Source: a virus
DNA: 48,736 bases
Virus record (IMG/VR): IMGVR_UViG_3300011440_000008
Span: 1 to 48,736 of that record
Reading direction: 5' to 3' (one strand)
The translations under genes were made by a program, and so were the position numbers. This document shows, piece after piece, positions 1 through 48,736 of this stretch. The notes beneath the pieces were generated by a model that saw only the letters and a list, made by a program, of their open reading frames with translations, ran no database searches and had not been told where the DNA came from. How positions within the stretch are numbered: position 1 is the first letter of the stretch; each line of letters opens with the position of its first letter.

Positions 1-123
1 CTATCCGCAGGGCGAGCGCCACGCCTGCGAGTTGGAGCGCGACCACGCCGACGACTATCACGCGCAGGGTGGTGTCCGATGGATTGGCTATTTCAAGACG
101 CCACCGGAGGAGCCCCCAGCCGC
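1..123. repeat. Terminal direct repeat, left copy
   Basis: Bases 1-123 are identical to 48614-48736 at the other end. An exact end-to-end repeat of this size is what an assembler leaves when it opens a circular or circularly permuted molecule. It lies inside an open reading frame that continues without a break across the join, so it is more likely an assembly overlap than a true physical terminal repeat, though the latter cannot be excluded. Confidence 0.95.
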
Positions 124-5481: not shown

Positions 5482-7184
5482 TGATCGAACTCCGCTACCT
5501 CGATCCCAGTAGCGGTACTGGGATCATAGACGGTGCTTTGGACACCGTACTACCGGACGCGGCACTCTACGTTGGCCAGCAAGTCTTCGTGGCCAACATA
5601 GCGCCGGTGTCCGCGGCTCTTATCGTTCGCCCGAATGGAAATCAGCTTATCGATGGAGCACAGTCCATTGTCAGCCTGGGCCAAGGTGAAACGATACTGT
5701 TCCTGAGCGATGGAGTCAGTTGGAGAGCACTGAGGGGTGCTACCCCAAGCGGACTTCCGTCTCACGCGACTTCCCATGAGTCTGGTGGTAGTGACGAAAT
5801 ACTCGTGGACAACTTGATTGGTCTACTGCAAGACCCTCAGAAACCATTGACACATACCATTAACGGTAGTGATCACTCCTTCCCAGGCGGCGCAGCGATC
5901 TTTCTCAACGCGGATGGAAGCTTCGTGGCCGCTGGTGGTGGGTCACCGCCGACCGGCACAGGCTTCAGGCATGTTACTGCCGGTGTTGAGGACGCAGCAT
6001 CGAAGCTGGTTGACACAGCGGACGTAAATAACGATCAGATCACCAATGCGCTACTTGCAAACATGGCTCAGAGCACGGTAAAGGGCCGAGCGGTCGGCGC
6101 CGGTACCGGTGATCCAGTCGATTTGACTGCTACTGAGCTTACCGCAATCCCCAATGTGTTCACGTCAGCACTACAGGGAATGGTTCCGGCATCAAGCGGC
6201 GGCACAGCTAACTTTCTCCGCGCCGATGGGTCATTCGCCACTCCACCGTCAGGCGGATCACCGCCGACCGGCACAGGCTTCCGTCACATTACCGCTGGAG
6301 CAGAGGACGCGGCAGCAAAGCTAGTCGATACGGCAGATGTGAACACCGATCAGATCACCAACACTCTGCTTGCTAACATGGCAGCAGCTACGATCAAGGG
6401 ACGTGCCCTTGGTGCCGGGACTGGTGATCCCACGGACTTGACGGCAGCGCAGGTGCTTACCGCTATCTCCGCTATCTCCAATGTCCAGCTACAAGTCTTC
6501 ACTGCTGTCGGAGCTAACACTTACACTCCCACTGCTGGAATGAAGACGTGTCTCGTTATCTCTACTGGGGCCGGTGGTGGTGGCGGTGGTGCAGATACTT
6601 CAGCGGGCGGCAGCGGTGACGTAGGCGTCGGCGGTGGTGGTGGGGCTGGCGGCACCTGCATTGAGCTATTCTCAGCCGCCACTATCGGCGCATCACAGAC
6701 TGTCACTATCGGAACCGGCGGCCTAGCAGGCACCAATGCTGGTGGCGCTGGTGGTACTGGCAGCAACACCACATTCGGGGCTCTACACACCGCGAATGGT
6801 GGGACCGGCGGTAATGGATCTGGGTCTGTTGCTGTAGATGCACAAGCCACCAATGGTGGTGTTGGTGGTTCACCCACGGGTGGACTGCTCAATATCTTAG
6901 GTGGCGATGGTGGATGCGGTCTTGCCTCCGCCCACGATCAGACTACCAGCGACATGATCATCGGCCGCAGTGGATTCGGTGGTGCATCGTTCTGGGGTGG
7001 TGGTGGTCGTGAGACAGTTGGCGCTCAGTTGAGTCTTGTAACTGACCTTACTGTTGTCGGTAACAATGGCAAGGCGTTTGGCTCCGGTGGCAGCGGCGCG
7101 TTGGACTTCACCACCGTCAATGGTGTTGCCGGTGGAGTTGGTGCCGATGGGGTCTGTGTCGTGATCGAGTTCTTGGCGCCGTAG
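5481..7184 (+). CDS. Glycine-rich tail fibre / receptor-binding protein
   Basis: 567 residues; its ATG overlaps the portal stop (TAATGA). A module beginning GSPPTGTGFRH and running through KGRAVGAGTGDPVDLT is present twice (about residues 155-225 and 260-325), typical of phage fibre shafts. The last 200 residues are a Gly-rich tip (AGGGGGGADTSAGGSGD and many GGAGG runs) like the polyglycine receptor-binding tips of T-even and related adhesins. It should bind the host surface. Its place between portal and scaffold is unusual; fibre genes normally lie after the tail genes. Confidence 0.8.
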   Translation: MIELRYLDPSSGTGIIDGALDTVLPDAALYVGQQVFVANIAPVSAALIVRPNGNQLIDGAQSIVSLGQGETILFLSDGVSWRALRGATPSGLPSHATSHESGGSDEILVDNLIGLLQDPQKPLTHTINGSDHSFPGGAAIFLNADGSFVAAGGGSPPTGTGFRHVTAGVEDAASKLVDTADVNNDQITNALLANMAQSTVKGRAVGAGTGDPVDLTATELTAIPNVFTSALQGMVPASSGGTANFLRADGSFATPPSGGSPPTGTGFRHITAGAEDAAAKLVDTADVNTDQITNTLLANMAAATIKGRALGAGTGDPTDLTAAQVLTAISAISNVQLQVFTAVGANTYTPTAGMKTCLVISTGAGGGGGGADTSAGGSGDVGVGGGGGAGGTCIELFSAATIGASQTVTIGTGGLAGTNAGGAGGTGSNTTFGALHTANGGTGGNGSGSVAVDAQATNGGVGGSPTGGLLNILGGDGGCGLASAHDQTTSDMIIGRSGFGGASFWGGGGRETVGAQLSLVTDLTVVGNNGKAFGSGGSGALDFTTVNGVAGGVGADGVCVVIEFLAP

Positions 7185-7829: not shown

Positions 7830-8879
7830 GTGGCAACAGCCGATTCAGCCGGTTCCGAGGGCCAGGGAGCACTCCCGACGATCGATCAAGCGCTCAACAG
7901 CGCATTCGATTCTCTGGAGCAGTCTGGTGAAGTCACCACCGAAGATGGCGGTGGTCCTGCAGTCAGCGATGACGATGCCGGGGCTGCCGACGAATCAGCG
8001 AGTGGTGATGGGACCGGTGATGGCGACACCAGCACGGCCGGCGCCGATGGCCAGGAGCAGCAGACCGACAAGGGGGAGGGTGCTCCTGACAAGGCCCCCG
8101 AGGCACCCGTCACACTTCCAGACTACCTACAGGGCTCAGGCAACGAAGAACTGGGCCGTCTCTATTCACAGCTTCAGCCGGAAGCACGCGACTACATCAA
8201 CAAGGTTCTGACTCCGAAGTTCCAAGAGTTCGCTGCGAACCGCAAGTTCCTTGAGGCGTTCCGAACGAACGCTGAGGAAGCCGCCAACGCCGTACTCGAT
8301 CAGATCCAGGGACAGAGAAAGCAAACAGCGCAGTCGGATGAAGAAGCGATCACGACAACGACGAAGGTCATCAAGGATGAATTGGTCGCTGGTGGTGTGG
8401 ATGCCGCGCAGGCCGAAGTCCAGGCGCGCGCAATGGCGAAGGCTCAGCACGCTACGATGGCTCCGTTTCGTCAGGCGGAACAGCAGCGCGCGGTAGAGTC
8501 GATCGCCAAGGCCGCCGAAGCCGAAACCACACGCTTCCAAACCGAATTCCCCGACTGCAAGGACGAGGAACCTCTGGGCAAGCGAGTAGGCGAACTGATG
8601 GACTCGTTAGTCCCCGCGCCGGGATCCAACACGAGCACCTACGACTACCTCAAGATGCTGCGCACCATCGCGGCTTCGGAACAGGGCATTGCGGACGGGA
8701 CGAGGAAGGCTGTGAAGAAGATGGTCAAGGGCGCCGAAGCTGCGGCTGCTGGAAAGGTACCGAAGGCGGTGGGCGACGGGACCGTCAAGCCCGGTCAGGC
8801 CGGAAAGCTTCTGTCCATCGATGAATCCATCGCCATGGCAGAGCGCGGCGAAGTAGTGGGGCGCGGGATCAACCGTTAG
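7830..8879 (+). CDS. Scaffolding protein (probable)
   Basis: 349 residues, GTG start with AGGAGG upstream. Immediately precedes the capsid gene. The N-terminal third is acidic and low complexity (VSDDDAGAADESASGDGTGD), followed by long charged helices with coiled-coil character (EAANAVLDQIQGQRKQ, QAEVQARAMAKAQHA) and a basic C-terminal segment. This is the standard architecture of tailed-phage scaffolds, which guide capsid assembly and are then removed or cleaved. Confidence 0.8.
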   Translation: MATADSAGSEGQGALPTIDQALNSAFDSLEQSGEVTTEDGGGPAVSDDDAGAADESASGDGTGDGDTSTAGADGQEQQTDKGEGAPDKAPEAPVTLPDYLQGSGNEELGRLYSQLQPEARDYINKVLTPKFQEFAANRKFLEAFRTNAEEAANAVLDQIQGQRKQTAQSDEEAITTTTKVIKDELVAGGVDAAQAEVQARAMAKAQHATMAPFRQAEQQRAVESIAKAAEAETTRFQTEFPDCKDEEPLGKRVGELMDSLVPAPGSNTSTYDYLKMLRTIAASEQGIADGTRKAVKKMVKGAEAAAAGKVPKAVGDGTVKPGQAGKLLSIDESIAMAERGEVVGRGINR

Positions 8880-8923: not shown

Positions 8924-9997
8924 TTGGCCGCAACCGCACAGACCATCAACTACAACGGTCTGTTCACCAGCACCCTGATGAACTACAACGCGACTCTGGT
9001 GGACAACGTGTCGAAGTCCATGCTGCTCCTCTATCACTTGATGAAGGAGCGCGACGACGGCTACGTTCCGGCCGGTGACGGACTCGGAGCGAAGAAGCAG
9101 ATCAACCTGATGTACGGGTTGAACAACGCCGAGCCCTACGCCGACTACGATCAGATCGAGTACGCTCCGGTGGACGGGATCACCGCAGCGTTCTGGGACT
9201 GGCGCCAACTCGCCACCACCGTGCAGATCAGCCGCATCGAGGAGCGCAAGAACTCCGGTCGGCACGCGATCTTCAAGTTGCTCAAGGCTCGCATCAAGCA
9301 GGCCACTCTCGGCATCCAAGAGAAGTTCGCCAAGATGCTGATGCAGGGCAATGGGATCAACAACAACGCTGCGGGCCAGATCGAAGCGCCCTACGCACAC
9401 CCGACGACGGGAAGGAAGTTCATCGATCCGCTGTTCCTGCTGGTGAAGAAGGATCCCACCACGTCAACGACCATCGGGGAAATCAACCAGTCCACCGAAA
9501 CGTGGTGGAGGAACATCAGCTATGAGAGCACGTCCAGCAGCTATGCGGGATTCCTGTTCGAACTGGACGATCTGTACACGCAGTTGCAGGAAGGGCCGGG
9601 TGGTTCGCCCACTCTGTTCGTGTGCGATCGGCGCACGTACCTGTACTACAACGCGGCGCTCCGTTCGAAGCAGCGCTTCATCGAATACAAGAGGGCCGGA
9701 TTCCCGTTCGAAGCCACCGACTTCCACGGACACCCGCTCGTGTGGGATACGTTCATGCCCAACGTGGAGGCCAGGACCACAACCCAATCGCCCTCGCAAG
9801 GGTCACTGGCGATGCTGTCGCCCCAGTTCCTCGAAATCGAGTACGACCCCGAAACGAACTTCATGAACACGCCTTTCGAGACACCGCCGGATCAGGATGC
9901 CCGTTCGTCCAAGCTACTCTGGTACGGCGCGCAGGGCACGTCACAGCGGCGGAAGCAGGGCGTGATGTGGGGCATCGACACCACGCCGGTCGCCTAA
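8924..9997 (+). CDS. Major capsid protein
   Basis: 357 residues from TTG at 8924, chosen for the AAGGAG eight bases upstream; an in-frame TTG at 8897 has no such site. The protein directly follows the scaffold, is of normal size and composition for an HK97-fold capsid protein, and has the long N-terminal helix region (LKARIKQATLGIQEKFAKML) and beta-rich C-terminal half (FVCDRRTYLYYNAALRSK) seen in several podovirus capsids. Forms the icosahedral shell. No obvious decoration domain fusion. Confidence 0.88.
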   Translation: MAATAQTINYNGLFTSTLMNYNATLVDNVSKSMLLLYHLMKERDDGYVPAGDGLGAKKQINLMYGLNNAEPYADYDQIEYAPVDGITAAFWDWRQLATTVQISRIEERKNSGRHAIFKLLKARIKQATLGIQEKFAKMLMQGNGINNNAAGQIEAPYAHPTTGRKFIDPLFLLVKKDPTTSTTIGEINQSTETWWRNISYESTSSSYAGFLFELDDLYTQLQEGPGGSPTLFVCDRRTYLYYNAALRSKQRFIEYKRAGFPFEATDFHGHPLVWDTFMPNVEARTTTQSPSQGSLAMLSPQFLEIEYDPETNFMNTPFETPPDQDARSSKLLWYGAQGTSQRRKQGVMWGIDTTPVA

Positions 9998-28335: not shown

Positions 28336-30909
28336 TTATGACACCTTGACCATGGTACCCCAGTCGTAGCCAATCTTAGCTTCGACTTTGAGAGGCACGC
28401 TTAGTAAGGGTTGATCCATGGTCATCAAGTGGGTGATGACCGGTGCTACATCTTCACTGCCGTCTGGGATGGAGAACAGGAGTTCATCGTAAATCTGCAT
28501 CAGCGGTTGGACTTTGACTTCCGGGTTTTGGTCAATCCACTGTTGGATGCGGGCCATCGCGCGCTTGGTGAAGTAAGCGTTGCCCTCTTGGATCGGGTAG
28601 TTACCTGCGTGTCGCTCCGCTTCACTTCGGAGCGGATCGCGTGAATCAAGGTAGATGTTAGGAAGGTGGCGGATTCGCCCTGAAAGGCCACGGACAAATC
28701 CGTGCCGCCTAACTTCAGAAAACAGGTTCTCAAGCCAGGACCGCACACCAGAGTAAAGCCGGAACCACTCAGCAATGATACGACGGCATTTCCGTTCCGA
28801 CTTGTCAATGCCCGCTTCAAGCAACTCAGCACGGAGGCGGACCCAGGACATGCCGTAGAAGATGCCGAAGTTGATCGTCTTGGCGATGTATCGGGAAATG
28901 CCGAGTGCTTGGGCCGTTTTTTCATGTAGGTCTTCTCCTTTGCGGAAGGCCCGGAGCATTTCCTTGTCTTGGGATAAGTGAGCCCCGATACGAAGCTCGA
29001 TTTGACTGTAGTCACAGGAGAGGAGAATACGGCCATGGCGGGCGACGAACGCTTCCCTGATGCGTCGGCCAATCCTCGTGCGGACCGGTATGTTGAGAAG
29101 ATTCGGCTCTGACGTAGAGGGTCGTCCGGTGATGGTACCTTGCGTGTTGATCTTGCAGAAGATCGTCGGGTACTCATGGCCATCCTCGTCTAGCACCATG
29201 ACGGCGTGCTTTGGAATGCGATCGATGAAGGTGACGTTGGTATGGAGTTTCTTCCACGCGATGTACTCAGAGATGGAGTCGTGTTGGTCCTTCAGGAGTT
29301 CTAAGGTGTTCTCATCCACCTTCGGCCGGGGTGCTTTGGTAGTGCCACCGTCAGTCCACTTAATAGGCTTCAGGCCAACTTTCTCGTAAAGGAATTTGGC
29401 GAGTAGATCACCCGATGCGAGGTTGAAGTAGTGCCCGCCGTTCCACTTCTTGAGCCATGCCTTTGCGACATCGTCCCTGGCCTTCACCACTTCGGGCCTG
29501 ATGCGGGCGAAGTGGTCAAGGTCAATGGTCATGCCTGTAGTGGACATGGCGGCGAACATCGGGATGGCGTTAAGGTCTGTTTTGTAGGCTTCCTCTAAGC
29601 CTAGAGCCTGAATGCGTGGCCAGTAAATTGCTTTTAGGCGCCGAGTGCCATCCGCGTCTTCGCAAGCGTAAGGAATTAGCTTCGACTCAGGCGCGAGCGA
29701 TGGGTCGGAAACAGGGAACGCACCACACTTGCGTACAATCCTCTTGCGAATGTCCGGCCCCAGTTTTTCCCACCGGCCACTGAGACTAACCTTCTTCCCA
29801 GACGCGATTGCCGTGAGGATGGACTCCAGTCGAGTGCCAATTGCGTGCGGGCGATATAGGCGCTTCTTGCCCGTCTTCTTGTCGAATATCTTCCTGGGCT
29901 TGGACTTTCCCCATTTACGATCGGCCGCATTAACCAAGTACTCAAGACAGGCACGCCGATAGTACGGGCCAACAACCGATTCATACTCACTCATTTCCAT
30001 ATCGCAATGTCGGAAGGCGCCTTCCTTGAGCCCTGCCGGCTCACCAAGGAGTTTCGCCATCAGCATGGTGTCGTGGAAGGGGTATTGAGTCTTGCCGTAG
30101 TAATCCCAGGTGTACTTGCGGTGGAGTCGAATGCCCATCTTAGTAATGACGGGCATATCGTGCATGGAGTGGTGGTACGTTACTCCTTCGGGGAGGAAGT
30201 CGCCTTTCTTGATATCGGAAGCAAGTACAGCAAAGCCTTCGCCCGTGCGCGTTGAGTAAGAGAGGCAGTGGGGTCTATGGAGATAGCCTTCAGTATCAAC
30301 CGCTGGATCTGGACCCGTGATGAGCAGGGACGGTTTGCGTGAGTACGAACGTTCGGGGCAGGGGTCTTTGCGCTCTCGGGGGGTGAGTTCCCCTCTGACG
30401 TACAGAGCAAACTGCTTAACATCGTGGAAGCACTTGTCAGCATTCTCTGGATTGCGCATTCCTGATGCGGGGTGGTATGCGGCGATGACCCAAGCATCAC
30501 CATGCCCGTCAGGGTACGGCCACAGGAAGGGCAAGCCATGTGCGACTTCCAGTGATGGAAAGTCTGACCCAAGGAACCATTCACAAGCGTAACGACCGCA
30601 AGCGAGGATAAAGCGTGGCCGCACGGTTTCAAGATCACGTCGTAGGATGTGCTCATATCTTAGTATTTGCTCCTTGGTGGGCTTCTTGTCCTCGCGGGAG
30701 TCGGGGTGAAGGCGGCCTAACCACTTTGGGAAGACGTTGGTGACGAATAGACGGTGCCGCGGAAGACTGTTTACGAAGCAGTAAGTATCGAGGATGCGAC
30801 CGGACTTGCCCGCGAAGGGGTAGCCTGCTTCGTGTTCCCAGTAGGAAGGGCCTTCGCCAACAACCATGGGGGTGTTGTGAAGGCGGGGGCCGTTACCGGG
30901 GATTATCAT
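28336..30909 (-). CDS. polA: UDG-like domain fused to proofreading family A DNA polymerase
   Basis: 857 residues, replicative polymerase. Residues 1-175 resemble family 4 uracil-DNA glycosylase: VVGEGPSYWEHEAGYPFAGKSG (first half 16-27) and AAYHPAS (143-149). The four Fe-S Cys of that family are not all present. Residues about 195-430 are a 3'-5' exonuclease with VDTE (D205, E207), a HHSMHD segment and YACED. The polymerase has motif A DYSQIELR (near 631), motif B KTINFGIFYG (near 675) and motif C IYDEL (near 807), where the usual His is Tyr. Fused UDG-like domains are known in SPO1-type polymerases. Confidence 0.93.
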   Translation of the reverse strand: MIIPGNGPRLHNTPMVVGEGPSYWEHEAGYPFAGKSGRILDTYCFVNSLPRHRLFVTNVFPKWLGRLHPDSREDKKPTKEQILRYEHILRRDLETVRPRFILACGRYACEWFLGSDFPSLEVAHGLPFLWPYPDGHGDAWVIAAYHPASGMRNPENADKCFHDVKQFALYVRGELTPRERKDPCPERSYSRKPSLLITGPDPAVDTEGYLHRPHCLSYSTRTGEGFAVLASDIKKGDFLPEGVTYHHSMHDMPVITKMGIRLHRKYTWDYYGKTQYPFHDTMLMAKLLGEPAGLKEGAFRHCDMEMSEYESVVGPYYRRACLEYLVNAADRKWGKSKPRKIFDKKTGKKRLYRPHAIGTRLESILTAIASGKKVSLSGRWEKLGPDIRKRIVRKCGAFPVSDPSLAPESKLIPYACEDADGTRRLKAIYWPRIQALGLEEAYKTDLNAIPMFAAMSTTGMTIDLDHFARIRPEVVKARDDVAKAWLKKWNGGHYFNLASGDLLAKFLYEKVGLKPIKWTDGGTTKAPRPKVDENTLELLKDQHDSISEYIAWKKLHTNVTFIDRIPKHAVMVLDEDGHEYPTIFCKINTQGTITGRPSTSEPNLLNIPVRTRIGRRIREAFVARHGRILLSCDYSQIELRIGAHLSQDKEMLRAFRKGEDLHEKTAQALGISRYIAKTINFGIFYGMSWVRLRAELLEAGIDKSERKCRRIIAEWFRLYSGVRSWLENLFSEVRRHGFVRGLSGRIRHLPNIYLDSRDPLRSEAERHAGNYPIQEGNAYFTKRAMARIQQWIDQNPEVKVQPLMQIYDELLFSIPDGSEDVAPVITHLMTMDQPLLSVPLKVEAKIGYDWGTMVKVS

Positions 30910-42026: not shown

Positions 42027-42040
42027 TAGTGCCACTACTA
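42024..42040. promoter_or_regulatory. 17-bp dyad operator candidate
   Basis: TAGTAGTG-C-CACTACTA, a perfect inverted repeat with a one-base centre overlapping the XRE stop codon. Close variants form a three-site array at 47081-47146. Confidence 0.65.
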
Positions 42041-42088: not shown

Positions 42089-42157
42089 TTTACAGGGTGT
42101 CAATAGGTCACCAAGGCCCGATTGACAGCCTTTGGTGACTGTGCTATTGCTGCCCAC
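42089..42157 (+). promoter_or_regulatory. Leaderless promoter with flanking dyads for the HTH gene
   Basis: TTGACA (42122-42127), 17-bp spacer, TATTGC (42145-42150), then seven bases to ATG 42158: a leaderless arrangement. GTCACCAA (42107-42114) and TTGGTGAC (42132-42139) form an 8-bp inverted repeat around the -35, a probable operator. TTTACAGGGTGTCAA (42089-42103) is a relative of the dyads at 7745 and 27739. Confidence 0.6.
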
Positions 42158-43132
42158 ATGAGTAACCCCGGCCGGTGGGACCGCAGCTTCATCAAGAGGA
42201 TGCCCAAGGCGCAAAGGCAAGAAGTAGAGCGCCTGTTGGTGAAGGGTGTCACCGGGAAGTCCATTACTAAGAAGTTGGGACTCCCGCTGAATACGTGGGT
42301 GTCAGCGGTGAAAAAGAATCCGATTCCCGGTGGAGTGCTAGATCCAAAGGGCAAAGTGGCGAAGTTCGAAGGCGATTGGGTTGACTTCGATGGAGTGGTC
42401 AGAGAGTACAAGGGCCTTGACGCGAAGGGCCAGCCGAAGCCAGGGTTACCGATCATTAAGAGGAGGGGGAGAAGGCCGAATGCCCAAACGCAAAAAGCCG
42501 AAGTACAGGAAGTAAAGACCGCTGCGCGTGACTCGAAAGGAGTCCTACCTTTCAGCGCGAAGCGAGCCCGCCTTGATAGTGCTAAGCAGGCATCGGGTAA
42601 TGACAATGACAATGACCCTGCTGGTACTCCTATCAGTGAAGGGGGAGTGCCCGATGCTCCCCCCGCAATGCCGATGCCCAATGCGCAGCACGAAGGGAGT
42701 AAGGAGCGGGATACCGAAGCACCGATCCCCGATGAGCCTAAGAGAAGGAGCGCTCACAAGGGTCGCGTTGCCAAATTGGCCGAGACTAAGTATCCGATTA
42801 AGAAGCGCATGGATGACTTACTGACGATTAAGGCGGCAGCGCTAAAGGACGGGGAGCATAAGTTGGCGTTGGACGTGATCAAGACTTTCAACGACATGGA
42901 CGGCACTAGTACTGCGGCCAAGCGTGATGACCAAGGGCCGCCGAGTAACGCGCCGCTGTTTGCGATGCCGAAGGGGATTAGCAGTCAGGTAGCTGTAGGA
43001 GTAAGTCCTGTTGGGCCGGTGCCGCTGCGCCTGGATGATGACGAAGTAATCGTGGAAAGTGAAACCACGTCACCGATGAGTGGTGACGCGGTTGAGCCTC
43101 CCGCCGACGCTAGTACGATTACTGAGGACTGA
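42158..43132 (+). CDS. HTH protein, candidate small terminase
   Basis: 324 residues from ATG 42158, at the +1 of its promoter. Residues about 18-50 (QRQEVERLLVKGVTGKSITK followed by KLGLPLNTWVSAVKK) are a helix-turn-helix; a basic central region with KRRGRRPNAQTQK, a disordered Pro-rich part and a helical segment near residue 225 (PIKKRMDDLLTIKAAALKDG) follow. Small terminases have an N-terminal HTH and an oligomerisation region, and none sits beside terL, so this is the best candidate. It could equally be a separate transcription regulator. Confidence 0.6.
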   Translation: MSNPGRWDRSFIKRMPKAQRQEVERLLVKGVTGKSITKKLGLPLNTWVSAVKKNPIPGGVLDPKGKVAKFEGDWVDFDGVVREYKGLDAKGQPKPGLPIIKRRGRRPNAQTQKAEVQEVKTAARDSKGVLPFSAKRARLDSAKQASGNDNDNDPAGTPISEGGVPDAPPAMPMPNAQHEGSKERDTEAPIPDEPKRRSAHKGRVAKLAETKYPIKKRMDDLLTIKAAALKDGEHKLALDVIKTFNDMDGTSTAAKRDDQGPPSNAPLFAMPKGISSQVAVGVSPVGPVPLRLDDDEVIVESETTSPMSGDAVEPPADASTITED

Positions 43133-46535: not shown

Positions 46536-46847
46536 TTAACTCCTATGCTTCAACACGAACACGGGCATATCGGGATGATGCTCCCTGAGCCCACGTGCGA
46601 ATTCTTCCGCTTCCGCTTCGCTGGTAAAACCGACTGTAGCGGCCGCGCTAATGTGTCCTGCGCGCTGCTGGTGCCAGGATGGGCGCCCTTCGTGAACGTC
46701 CCATGTATCGGGTATGACCGTACCCAATTCAGCAACGCGCATTGCCTTGGCCTGAGCATCGGTCAATGAGTCTTCAGGCTCACGGCCGGGCGGGTTATCG
46801 CGCTCGTCGTCGTTGACTGCGTCCCAATCGCGCTCGGGGTTTTCCAT
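46536..46847 (-). CDS. Hypothetical protein, first gene of the early minus operon
   Basis: 103 residues. Acidic N-terminus (NDDERDNPPGREPEDSLTDA), then SWHQQRAGHISAAATVGFTS and VFVLKHRS at the end. Transcribed from the promoter at 46872-46900. It begins an operon that runs to 43136. Function unknown. Confidence 0.75.
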   Translation of the reverse strand: MENPERDWDAVNDDERDNPPGREPEDSLTDAQAKAMRVAELGTVIPDTWDVHEGRPSWHQQRAGHISAAATVGFTSEAEAEEFARGLREHHPDMPVFVLKHRS

Positions 46848-46871
46848 GGGTTAGTCAAACCTCACTGAGCC

Positions 46872-46900
46872 ATTTTCCCACTAGTCGGCATTCGTGTCAA
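46872..46900 (-). promoter_or_regulatory. Promoter of the left early operon
   Basis: Minus strand: TTGACA (46900-46895), 17-bp spacer, GAAAAT (46877-46872). It lies about 25 bases before ATG 46847 and is the only good candidate for this operon. Confidence 0.6.
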
Positions 46901-46966
46901 GCATTAATAATTGGTCCACCGAAACGCCCGTTCAGCAATGCGGTAGCCGCGCTACTAAGTACTAAG

Positions 46967-46994
46967 TACCCCTTACTAAGTACCCCTTAGTAAG
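46967..46994. repeat. Tandem 14-mers TACCCCTTASTAAG forming an inverted repeat
   Basis: TACCCCTTACTAAG (46967-46980) is followed directly by TACCCCTTAGTAAG (46981-46994). Within them CTTACTAAG and CTTAGTAAG form a perfect 9-bp inverted repeat with a five-base centre. The second copy is identical to 1718-1731 upstream of terL. Confidence 0.8.
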
Positions 46995-47080
46995 TACCAA
47001 ACAGACACCACACCAACCAACCATCACACCTATAACTCATTGGTCACACAGCGAGCGGCCGCTGCCCGTCGCTCCGTGCC

Positions 47081-47146
47081 CAGTAGTACCACCACTGACC
47101 AAGTAGTAGTAGCACTACTACTGCGCTCCTAGTAGTACCACTACCC
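47081..47146. promoter_or_regulatory. Array of three 17-bp operator-like dyads
   Basis: Sites at 47081-47097 (CAGTAGTACCACCACTG), 47104-47120 (TAGTAGTAGCACTACTA) and 47130-47146 (TAGTAGTACCACTACCC), with starts 23 and 26 bases apart, match the perfect dyad at 42024-42040 at 13-15 of 17 positions. The middle one is part of a 9-bp-arm palindrome (47102-47122). Layout resembles lambda-type operators. Confidence 0.65.
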
Positions 47147-47205
47147 CTACCCCCCCGAGTGACACCCCCCTTACCACCCACCGGCGGGGCACCCATAGAC
47201 ACTGA

Positions 47206-47233
47206 CCAATCACCAATCACCAATCACCAATCA
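47206..47233. repeat. Four tandem CCAATCA iterons
   Basis: Four contiguous exact copies of the 7-mer CCAATCA. Short tandem direct repeats of this kind in non-coding DNA commonly bind a replication initiator. Confidence 0.85.
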
Positions 47234-47254
47234 CACCGGCGAGCGGCACACTGT

Positions 47255-47286
47255 TTAGTTATTACTAACTACTCACTAATAACTAA
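47255..47286. repeat. AT-rich 10-bp inverted repeat
   Basis: TTAGTTATTA (47255-47264) and TAATAACTAA (47277-47286) are exact reverse complements around a 12-base centre. It could be a cruciform or an initiator binding site next to the iterons. Confidence 0.8.
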
Positions 47287-47478
47287 GCACTGCGCCCCGG
47301 TGAAAAATCACTCCACCACAGGCACCACCGCACCAAGCACCACTGACAGGCATTCGTGACGTCGGTTCGCTCGTGATTACTTCCCGTCGCCCCGCTACGC
47401 GGTGCTCCGGGCAGGAGGCCAGTGGCAAAGGCGGACGGGCAATGGGTAGTCCGACCGGTACTACTTAGTAATTACTGC

Positions 47479-47507
47479 TTGATCTGTACTCAGGAGTCAC
47501 ATATAAT
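47479..47507 (+). promoter_or_regulatory. Leaderless sigma70-type promoter P47
   Basis: TTGATC (47479-47484), 17-bp spacer, perfect TATAAT (47502-47507), then seven bases to ATG 47515. The spacer carries TGTACTC (47485-47491), as in the promoters at 48029 and 41096. Confidence 0.7.
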
Positions 47508-47514
47508 AAATGCC

Positions 47515-47994
47515 ATGCCGAGGGTGAAACCTGACCCAGTGGAGACGGAATTGCGGCGGCGGATTGCTTTGGTCCAATACCGCGCCACCGAGGGGATCCG
47601 TACCGTTCAGTCATCGGTGGAGAGTGTGCTTGATCGAGCGGTGGGTGAGCACTCCTTACCCCTTAGTACCCGACGACGTGGTAGACCACTAAGGGCTAAG
47701 CACCCGCTACCCCGCCGCGAACCAAAATGGGACGAGCGCGGCCGACTGGACTCCGCAGCACACGAAAAACACCAAGGCGAATACGTGATCGGCTGTCACG
47801 GGTGCTATCTCAGAGAGTACATCTACTTCCGCAACCACCCCGATGAGCGACCCCTATTGGATCAGCGAAAAAAGCGCCGCCCGTGGATCGACAAGGGGTG
47901 GGAAAAGGACTATCAGGACGTTCCCACCGTGCCGAGAGTGGAAAAACCGGTGAAATTACCCCGCAGCCGCATGTCGAAACGCGGTAAGTGGTGA
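47515..47994 (+). CDS. Hypothetical basic protein, leaderless
   Basis: 159 residues from ATG 47515, placed at the +1 of a strong promoter. A longer frame from GTG 47422 with AGGAGG upstream would add 31 residues but would lie upstream of the TATAAT box. N-terminal helix with VETELRRRIALVQYRATEGI, a basic Arg/Pro region (RRRGRPLRAKHPLPRREPK), HGCYLREYIYF and a basic tail. Likely DNA- or RNA-binding; first gene rightward of the control region, so an early regulator is plausible. No family recognised. Confidence 0.7.
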   Translation: MPRVKPDPVETELRRRIALVQYRATEGIRTVQSSVESVLDRAVGEHSLPLSTRRRGRPLRAKHPLPRREPKWDERGRLDSAAHEKHQGEYVIGCHGCYLREYIYFRNHPDERPLLDQRKKRRPWIDKGWEKDYQDVPTVPRVEKPVKLPRSRMSKRGKW

Positions 47995-48092: not shown

Positions 48093-48736
48093 ATGAGTGC
48101 ATCGTCCCAAGCGGACGGAGGAGGGGAATTGAGCGACGAGCGATACCTGCGGCTTTACCGAGATGAGCAGGTGCGCAGGTTCAAGGCGGAGCAGGAGAAC
48201 GCTGAGCTGCGGCTCGACCGCGATCAGTGGATTGACGTATGCCGACATGCGGAGGAGGAACGCGACGCCGCCGAGCAGTCACGGAAGGACGCCGAGGAGC
48301 AGCTTGAGCAGACACGTACCGATGCCTACAACCGCATCATGGAGGCGCGCGAGAAGGTACGCAAAGCTGAGGAGCAAGCGCACGCACTTTCTATCGACAG
48401 TGCGCACAAGATTGTCGCGCTGAAGGCCGCCGAGGAGCGGCTGGCCCAGGTGACGGAGGCGCTGCGCTCAGCCTTGAATGCGAATTTCACCGGAGGGCAC
48501 GGCGAGGACGGCACGCTGATCCGGCCCGGCTGCACTTGCTGGTTTTGCTACGGGCATAGCCGACTCACACCCCCAGCCGCGCCCGATGGCCCGGCCCGCT
48601 GCGGAGTGGTCGGCTATCCGCAGGGCGAGCGCCACGCCTGCGAGTTGGAGCGCGACCACGCCGACGACTATCACGCGCAGGGTGGTGTCCGATGGATTGG
48701 CTATTTCAAGACGCCACCGGAGGAGCCCCCAGCCGC
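48093..48736 (+). CDS. Coiled-coil, Cys/His-rich protein, N-terminal part (continues at base 124)
   Basis: First part of a 312-residue protein that crosses the window ends (48093-48736, then 124-418). The ATG has AGGAGG six bases upstream and lies about 28 bases below promoter 48029-48058. Residues about 15-130 are highly charged and heptad-like (RDEQVRRFKAEQENAELR and later EERDAAEQSRKDAEEQ), so probably a coiled coil. A CTCWFC motif follows near residue 150. Function unknown; it heads the operon that runs to 1631. It is probably a virion-independent early or middle protein, but that is inference from position only. Confidence 0.85.
   Translation, partial: MSASSQADGGGELSDERYLRLYRDEQVRRFKAEQENAELRLDRDQWIDVCRHAEEERDAAEQSRKDAEEQLEQTRTDAYNRIMEAREKVRKAEEQAHALSIDSAHKIVALKAAEERLAQVTEALRSALNANFTGGHGEDGTLIRPGCTCWFCYGHSRLTPPAAPDGPARCGVVGYPQGERHACELERDHADDYHAQGGVRWIGYFKTPPEEPPA
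48614..48736. repeat. Terminal direct repeat, right copy
   Basis: Second copy of bases 1-123. Removing one copy gives a unique length of 48,613 bases. The coding frame of the gene that starts at 48093 enters this copy and continues in the same frame from base 2 of the left copy, which supports joining the ends. Confidence 0.95.

What the first reader, a model, noticed from the sequence alone, without database searches (positions are those of the whole stretch)
47081..47146. Lambda-like array of 17-bp operators in the divergent control region, with a fourth site at the repressor gene
The perfect dyad TAGTAGTG-C-CACTACTA (42024-42040), which overlaps the stop of the XRE gene, is matched at 13 to 15 of 17 positions by three sites at 47081, 47104 and 47130, with starts 23 and 26 bases apart. 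Three 17-bp sites at two-turn spacing between divergent early operons is the geometry of CI/Cro operators, but the sequence is new to me. A 17-mer match of this quality clustered in 66 bases of non-coding DNA is very unlikely by chance.
Basis: partly seen in the sequence, partly recalled or inferred. Interest (0 to 1): 0.75.

Follow-up and report, generated by a model that had tools for sequence, protein, structure and literature searches.

The report
Repeated repressor-binding sites in uncultured phage
An uncultured bacterial virus carries a cluster of three similar 17-base mirror-symmetric DNA sites between its early and late gene blocks, with a fourth, perfect copy at the end of a small repressor-like gene; they look like docking sites for a gene-control protein, an ordinary kind of switch part found here in a poorly known phage group.

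Summary
The perfect dyad at 42024 and three related sites at 47081, 47104 and 47130 are present; the window is not expected to hold even one such match by chance, and the next-best independent match scores far lower. The window is very probably a complete phage genome without close cultured relatives. The array lies between the leftward replication operon and the rightward terminase/virion operon. A distant relative (L072) carries the same dyad, with a second site nearby, in the equivalent divergent region, about 230 bp from an XRE-type gene. Some other relatives carry paired or tripled dyads of different sequence upstream of their terminase genes. This supports protein-binding sites, most likely for the XRE protein.

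The CI/Cro-switch reading is not established. Spacing (23, 26 bp) matches lambda (23, 24), but the array sits about 180 and 330 bp from the two best promoter matches instead of overlapping them. The XRE gene is 5 kb away, no integrase or second repressor was recognised, and binding is untested. A second word, TACTWAGTA, occurs only four times in the genome, all in this region and nearer both promoters. Best reading: a new example of a known kind (phage operator array), ligand and mechanism unproven.

The parts
47081..47097 (+). dyad site 1, CAGTAGTACCACCACTG (13/17 to the 42024 dyad)
47104..47120 (+). dyad site 2, TAGTAGTAGCACTACTA (15/17; 16/17 on the other strand)
47130..47146 (+). dyad site 3, TAGTAGTACCACTACCC (14/17)
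42024..42040 (.). fourth site, perfect dyad TAGTAGTGCCACTACTA; first three bases are the stop codon of the XRE gene
41631..42026 (+). small XRE/Cro-type HTH protein (131 aa), proposed ligand of the sites
   Evidence: HTH_3 E=1.7e-4; family profile hits SinR, DdrO, lambda CI; HTH core residues 51-102 confident in the model
42158..43132 (+). gene downstream of the XRE gene and of the fourth site (324 aa); N-terminal HTH-like stretch by eye only
   Evidence: no confident family match
46953..46998 (.). second repeat class: three TACTAAGTA words plus TTAGTAAGTAC, 53-98 bp upstream of the leftward promoter match
47462..47470 (.). fourth TACTWAGTA word, just before the -35 of the rightward promoter match
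46872..46900 (-). leftward promoter match TTGACA-17-GAAAAT (early operon)
   Evidence: consensus match only
47479..47507 (+). rightward promoter match TTGATC-17-TATAAT, 7 nt before the ATG at 47515 (possibly leaderless)
   Evidence: consensus match only
46848..47514 (.). divergent non-coding control region between the early and late operons
47203..47234 (+). four tandem 7-bp repeats (overlapping TSACCAATCAC)
42009..42021 (.). second dyad beside the fourth site, GGTCACACTGACC
42106..42139 (.). inverted repeat GGTCACCAAGGC / GCCTTTGGTGAC upstream of the 42158 gene
   Evidence: sequence

Best explanation
The sites are operators for a phage-encoded DNA-binding protein, most likely the XRE protein from 41631-42026. 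A dimer would bind each dyad, with half-site TAGTAGTR. Two or three dimers spaced about 2.2-2.5 helical turns apart would bind the array together and set the balance between the leftward early operon and the rightward terminase/virion operon. Because the array overlaps neither best promoter match, it would act from upstream (a nucleoprotein complex or looping, perhaps helped by the TACTWAGTA words nearer both promoters) and not by simple promoter occlusion. The fourth site at the end of the XRE gene would give feedback, for example as a roadblock to transcription running from the XRE gene into the 42158 gene. Shown: sites, spacing, non-chance status, an HTH gene, and the same dyad in the equivalent gap of a distant relative. 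Inferred: binding, partner, cooperativity, direction of control.
For: Sites far above chance. XRE fold. L072 shares the helicase (39%) and terminase (31%) in the alignments and has TAGTAGTAGCACTACTA at 8441 and TAGTAGTTGCGCTACTA at 8607 in the divergent gap, with an XRE gene starting at 8214; weaker partner sites can be read by eye about 24-27 bp from each. L118 (XRE 37% identical) has three dyads TCGGTAGGCTACCGA at 9213, 9232 and 9251 in non-coding DNA before its terminase and no other copy of the core in its 41-kb record. L131 has TCTASTAGA 8 times in 21 kb (chance 0.45), outside the long ORFs, including a pair just upstream of a TTGACA-17-TATACT promoter match. L077 has repeated dyads on both sides of its XRE gene. 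XRE C-proteins are known to use paired dimer sites, and one acts as an elongation roadblock inside its own gene (PMC6237814).
Against: No binding data. The array is about 180 and 330 bp from the best promoter matches. The XRE gene is 5 kb from the array. L131 and L125 have dyad arrays but no XRE gene was found in the DNA held. L118 shows no extra site at its XRE gene. Most relatives lack the TAGTAGT dyad. L072 was picked from 71 pattern hits, so part of its weight is post hoc; my rough count gives an expectation of about 0.002-0.01 relatives among 71 random hits.
Confidence: 0.52

Rival explanations
1. Replication origin. The array and the other repeats of the control region are binding sites of an initiator, and the isolated perfect dyad is an autoregulatory copy, as in iteron replicons.
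For: The 667-bp gap also holds tandem heptamers and an AT-rich stretch near 47255-47290. The array sits upstream of, not on, the promoter matches.
Against: No initiator gene recognised. L131 spreads its dyads over three separate places, one beside a strong promoter match.
Confidence: 0.15
2. Operators, but of a different protein: the 42158-43132 product, another phage protein not recognised here, or a host regulator.
For: The fourth site lies between the XRE gene and the 42158 gene, so proximity does not separate the two. The window and L072 XRE proteins are only 24-26% identical over their length.
Against: L072 has its XRE gene beside the sites and no clear homologue of the 42158 product there.
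Confidence: 0.16
3. Packaging site: repeats bound by the small terminase subunit, like lambda cosB R sites or a pac site.
For: Arrays lie upstream of the large terminase gene in the window, L072, L118, L131 and L125.
Against: A strong site lies 5 kb away at 42024; L131 has sites at three places; distance to the terminase varies from about 0.7 to 3.4 kb.
Confidence: 0.09
4. RNA hairpins (antitermination or processing) instead of DNA operators.
For: The dyads can form stems; the L072 8598-8660 stretch folds better than shuffles (z -2.8).
Against: Window folds of the array are only moderately better than shuffles (z -1.7 and -2.0). Both promoter matches point away from the array, so no transcript from them would contain it. 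The half-site sequence is kept, not only the pairing.
Confidence: 0.05
5. Low-complexity TAGTA-rich DNA without function.
For: The region is enriched in TACTA and related words.
Against: Local Markov models rarely give such a triple (0.6% at order 3), and L072 shares the dyad in the equivalent place.
Confidence: 0.03

Closest known systems
Phage lambda OR/OL operators with CI/Cro
   Same: 17-bp imperfect dyads, three in a row, start spacing 23 and 26 here against 23, 24 (OR) and 24, 20 (OL); Cro/CI-type HTH protein encoded
   Different: Sites do not overlap the promoter matches, gap is 667 bp, one XRE gene 5 kb away, no integrase or two-domain CI-like repressor recognised, different operator sequence
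Staphylococcus phage Phi11 cI-cro operators (PMC3991615)
   Same: Three homologous operators in a divergent gap, HTH repressors
   Different: There 15-bp sites between two divergent repressor genes; here early/late operons with the repressor gene elsewhere
Cluster A mycobacteriophage operators/stoperators (PMC6550527)
   Same: Related phages carry different site consensus sequences; some sites are away from promoters
   Different: Stoperators are up to about 30 13-bp sites spread over the genome, mostly in one orientation; here four symmetric sites at two places
C-protein C-boxes, notably C.Kpn2I (PMC6237814)
   Same: Small single-domain XRE protein, paired dimer sites, and one case of a site inside the regulator's own gene acting as roadblock
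   Different: Part of restriction-modification systems; not phage early/late control

Membership tests
Lambda-type CI/Cro operator region | Three about 17-bp dyads at about two-turn spacing | tested here: met
   Starts 23 and 26 apart; lambda 23/24 and 24/20
Lambda-type CI/Cro operator region | Operators overlap the divergent promoters they control | tested here: not met
   Best promoter matches at 46872-46900 (-) and 47479-47507 (+), about 180 and 330 bp away; consensus scan only, other promoter types not covered
Lambda-type CI/Cro operator region | Two divergent repressor genes (cI and cro) flank the operators | tested here: not met
   Flanking genes 46536-46847 and 47515-47994 have no HTH match; the XRE gene is 5 kb away
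Lambda-type CI/Cro operator region | Temperate phage with integration or maintenance genes | tested here: inconclusive
   No integrase or ParA among the larger ORFs scanned; many ORFs have no family match at all
Lambda-type CI/Cro operator region | Repressor binds the sites cooperatively | not testable with these tools
   Needs purified protein
XRE (Cro/CI-type HTH) proteins | HTH_3-type helical DNA-binding domain | tested here: met
   PF01381 E=1.7e-4, 22.0 bits against cutoff 23; profile of 15 relatives hits SinR, DdrO and lambda CI chains; confident helices 51-58, 62-70, 77-87, 91-102; Foldseek top matches are XRE proteins but E-values are weak, 0.08 or worse
Cluster A stoperators | Many asymmetric 13-bp sites across the genome, mostly in one orientation | tested here: not met
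   Four symmetric sites at two places; next-best match far weaker
Iteron replication origin | Initiator gene plus direct repeats beside an AT-rich element | tested here: inconclusive
   Repeats and an AT-rich stretch present; no initiator recognised

The most novel reading that the evidence does not exclude
An uncultured phage group controls its early/late divide through upstream dyad arrays whose recognition sequence changes from lineage to lineage (TAGTAGT, CGGTAG, TCTAGTAGA and others) while the arrangement stays, using a small single-domain XRE protein that acts at a distance from both promoters and as a roadblock at the end of its own gene, and not as a lambda-type occluding switch.
Probability: 0.2. 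Interest if true: 0.5.

Novelty: new member of a known kind. Interest (0 to 1): 0.36.

Why it matters
It gives a concrete, testable repressor-operator pair in a phage group without close cultured relatives. If the sites of related phages differ in sequence while the layout stays, the group would offer a natural series for studying how operator and repressor specificity change together, as has been done with mycobacteriophage immunity.

Tried and rejected
A DNA comparison of 41.4-48.7 kb with known phages found nothing. The XRE protein had no hit in viral contigs or in phage records. Helicase relatives were absent from cellular genomes at the sensitivity of that scan. Most of the 71 exact dyad matches in viral contigs are AT-rich or triplet-repeat matches without relation to this phage by protein; L072 was the clear exception. 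A scan for paired GTAGT-NNN-ACTAC sites gave 15 loci, none related to the window by protein. L003 and L004 share one early protein but no dyad in the DNA held. Folding as RNA was only mildly above shuffles. A suspected homology of the 42158 product to the gene beside the L072 terminase was not supported, and no clear homologue was found among the relatives' ORFs. A comparison with an L081 ORF failed on coordinates and was not pursued.

Full report
What was checked. The four sites are at the stated coordinates. The 42024-42040 sequence is a perfect dyad (arms of 8, centre of 1) whose first three bases are the stop codon of ORF 41631-42026. Sites 47081, 47104 and 47130 match it at 13, 15 and 14 of 17 positions, with starts 23 and 26 apart. 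Five strand-hits with up to three mismatches compare with 0.04 expected, and no shuffle reached five. A matrix from the four sites scores the weakest at 22.0 and the best match elsewhere at 13.8; the matrix is trained on those sites, so this shows separation, not independence. The gap is rich in TACTA-type words, so I also compared with Markov copies of the gap itself. The triple was reached in none of 500 at orders 1 and 2 and in 0.6% at order 3.

The genome. The window is a virus record of 48,736 bases with an exact 123-base repeat at its two ends, so it is very probably a complete genome. Rightward genes include large terminase, portal, major head and tail-related proteins; leftward genes include a UDG-PolA fusion polymerase, a helicase, an ERCC4-domain protein and a weak RecE-like match. 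Read as a circle, the array lies between the leftward replication operon, first gene 46536-46847, and the rightward operon beginning at 47515 and running through the ends towards the terminase genes. No integrase was recognised in the ORFs scanned, though many ORFs have no match. The terminase's only matches in phage records are haloarchaeal viruses at 22-24% identity.

The protein. ORF 41631-42026 encodes 131 residues with an HTH_3 match (E=1.7e-4, one bit under the curated cutoff). Small XRE proteins were found in about a dozen of the helicase or terminase relatives. A profile of 15 of them matches SinR, DdrO, C-proteins and lambda CI chains. The AlphaFold model has a confident four-helix core at residues 51-102. 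Foldseek's top matches are mostly XRE-type proteins but with weak E-values. No second domain was recognised, so the protein resembles Cro or a C-protein more than CI.

Comparison with relatives. A scan for TAGTAGTRSYACTACTA in viral contigs found 71 loci. One, L072, also encodes the window's helicase and terminase families (39% and 31% identity in the alignments). It carries TAGTAGTAGCACTACTA at 8441 and TAGTAGTTGCGCTACTA at 8607 in the gap between its leftward XRE/terminase genes and its rightward genes leading to the helicase. Reading the sequence by eye suggests a weaker partner for each about 24-27 bp away. Its XRE gene starts at 8214. L072 was selected from 71 hits, so its weight is partly post hoc; my rough count is an expectation of 0.002-0.01 relatives among 71 random hits. 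Among 22 further helicase loci and the terminase loci, no other locus carries the TAGTAGT dyad, apart from a second copy of the L072 contig.

Other relatives have different dyads in the same kind of place. L118 has TCGGTAGGCTACCGA at 9213 and 9251 and a three-mismatch copy at 9232, all in the non-coding stretch before its terminase; a core search of the whole record found only this cluster. L131 has eight TCTASTAGA words (0.45 expected), outside the long ORFs, in three places, one beside a strong promoter match. L125 has a TACGTATAG array. L077 has repeated dyads flanking its XRE gene. Several other relatives showed no such arrays, so the pattern is frequent, not universal. This screen was run after the window had been seen and uses my own scoring, with only a few shuffles per locus, and in some loci (L077, L085) shuffles scored as high as the real sequence.

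Geometry. Lambda OR sites start 23 and 24 apart and OL sites 24 and 20 apart, close to the 23 and 26 here. But the best promoter matches here are TTGACA-17-GAAAAT at 46900-46872, leftward, and TTGATC-17-TATAAT at 47479-47507, rightward. The array lies about 180 and 330 bp from them, and both point away from it. L072 has the same layout, with promoter matches at 8250-8221 and 8724-8753 and sites between. Only sigma-70 consensus matches were scored and the host is unknown, so overlapping promoters of another type cannot be excluded. A second word, TACTWAGTA, occurs four times in the genome (0.05 expected), three times upstream of the leftward promoter match and once just before the rightward -35. 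It may be the site of a second regulator or a variant half-site.

Explanation. I think the sites are operators, most likely of the XRE protein, acting from upstream on one or both operons, with the fourth site giving feedback or a roadblock between the XRE gene and the 42158 gene. A C-protein binding inside its own gene as an elongation roadblock is known (PMC6237814). Probability about 0.52. The main rivals are another binding protein (0.16), a replication origin (0.15) and a packaging site (0.09). An RNA-hairpin reading is weak because folding of the array is only mildly better than shuffles and neither promoter match would transcribe it.

Verdict. Observation confirmed; interpretation partly supported. 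The features that define a lambda-type switch were mixed: spacing met, promoter overlap and flanking repressor pair not met, lifestyle inconclusive, binding untestable here. On present evidence it works like a phage operator array and should not be filed as a CI/Cro switch. I rate it a new member of a known kind, interest 0.36. Nothing was withheld as a referred step.

Noticed in passing
window 1-123 and 48614-48736: Exact 123-base direct repeat at the two ends, so the record is probably a complete, circularly mapped genome.
   Followed up: partly
window 28336-30909 (-): Family A DNA polymerase with an N-terminal uracil-DNA glycosylase-like domain (PF03167 E=5e-18, PF00476 E=3e-84), a fusion in one ORF.
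   Followed up: no
window 46953-46982 and 47462-47470: TACTWAGTA occurs four times in the whole genome, all in the control region and nearer the two promoter matches than the 17-bp array.
   Followed up: partly
window 42009-42021 and 42106-42139: Two further inverted repeats (GGTCACACTGACC; GGTCACCAAGGC / GCCTTTGGTGAC) around the XRE-42158 gene gap, beside the fourth site.
   Followed up: no
window 47203-47234: Four tandem 7-bp repeats (TSACCAATCAC overlapping) in the control region.
   Followed up: no
L103 3040-3080, L104 2845-2890, L105 6929-6969, L110 5304-5349, L112 329-370: Phages unrelated to the window by protein with tandem GTAGT-NNN-ACTAC dyads at 24-29 bp spacing beside the terminase gene.
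   Followed up: partly
L118 9213-9265; L131 558, 591, 4880, 6558-6693; L125 8115-8210; L092 9000-9048; L145 2464-2522: Paired or repeated dyads of lineage-specific sequence in relatives of this phage.
   Followed up: partly
window 47507-47515: The rightward promoter match ends 7 nt before the first ATG of 47515-47994, which would give a leaderless or nearly leaderless transcript.
   Followed up: no
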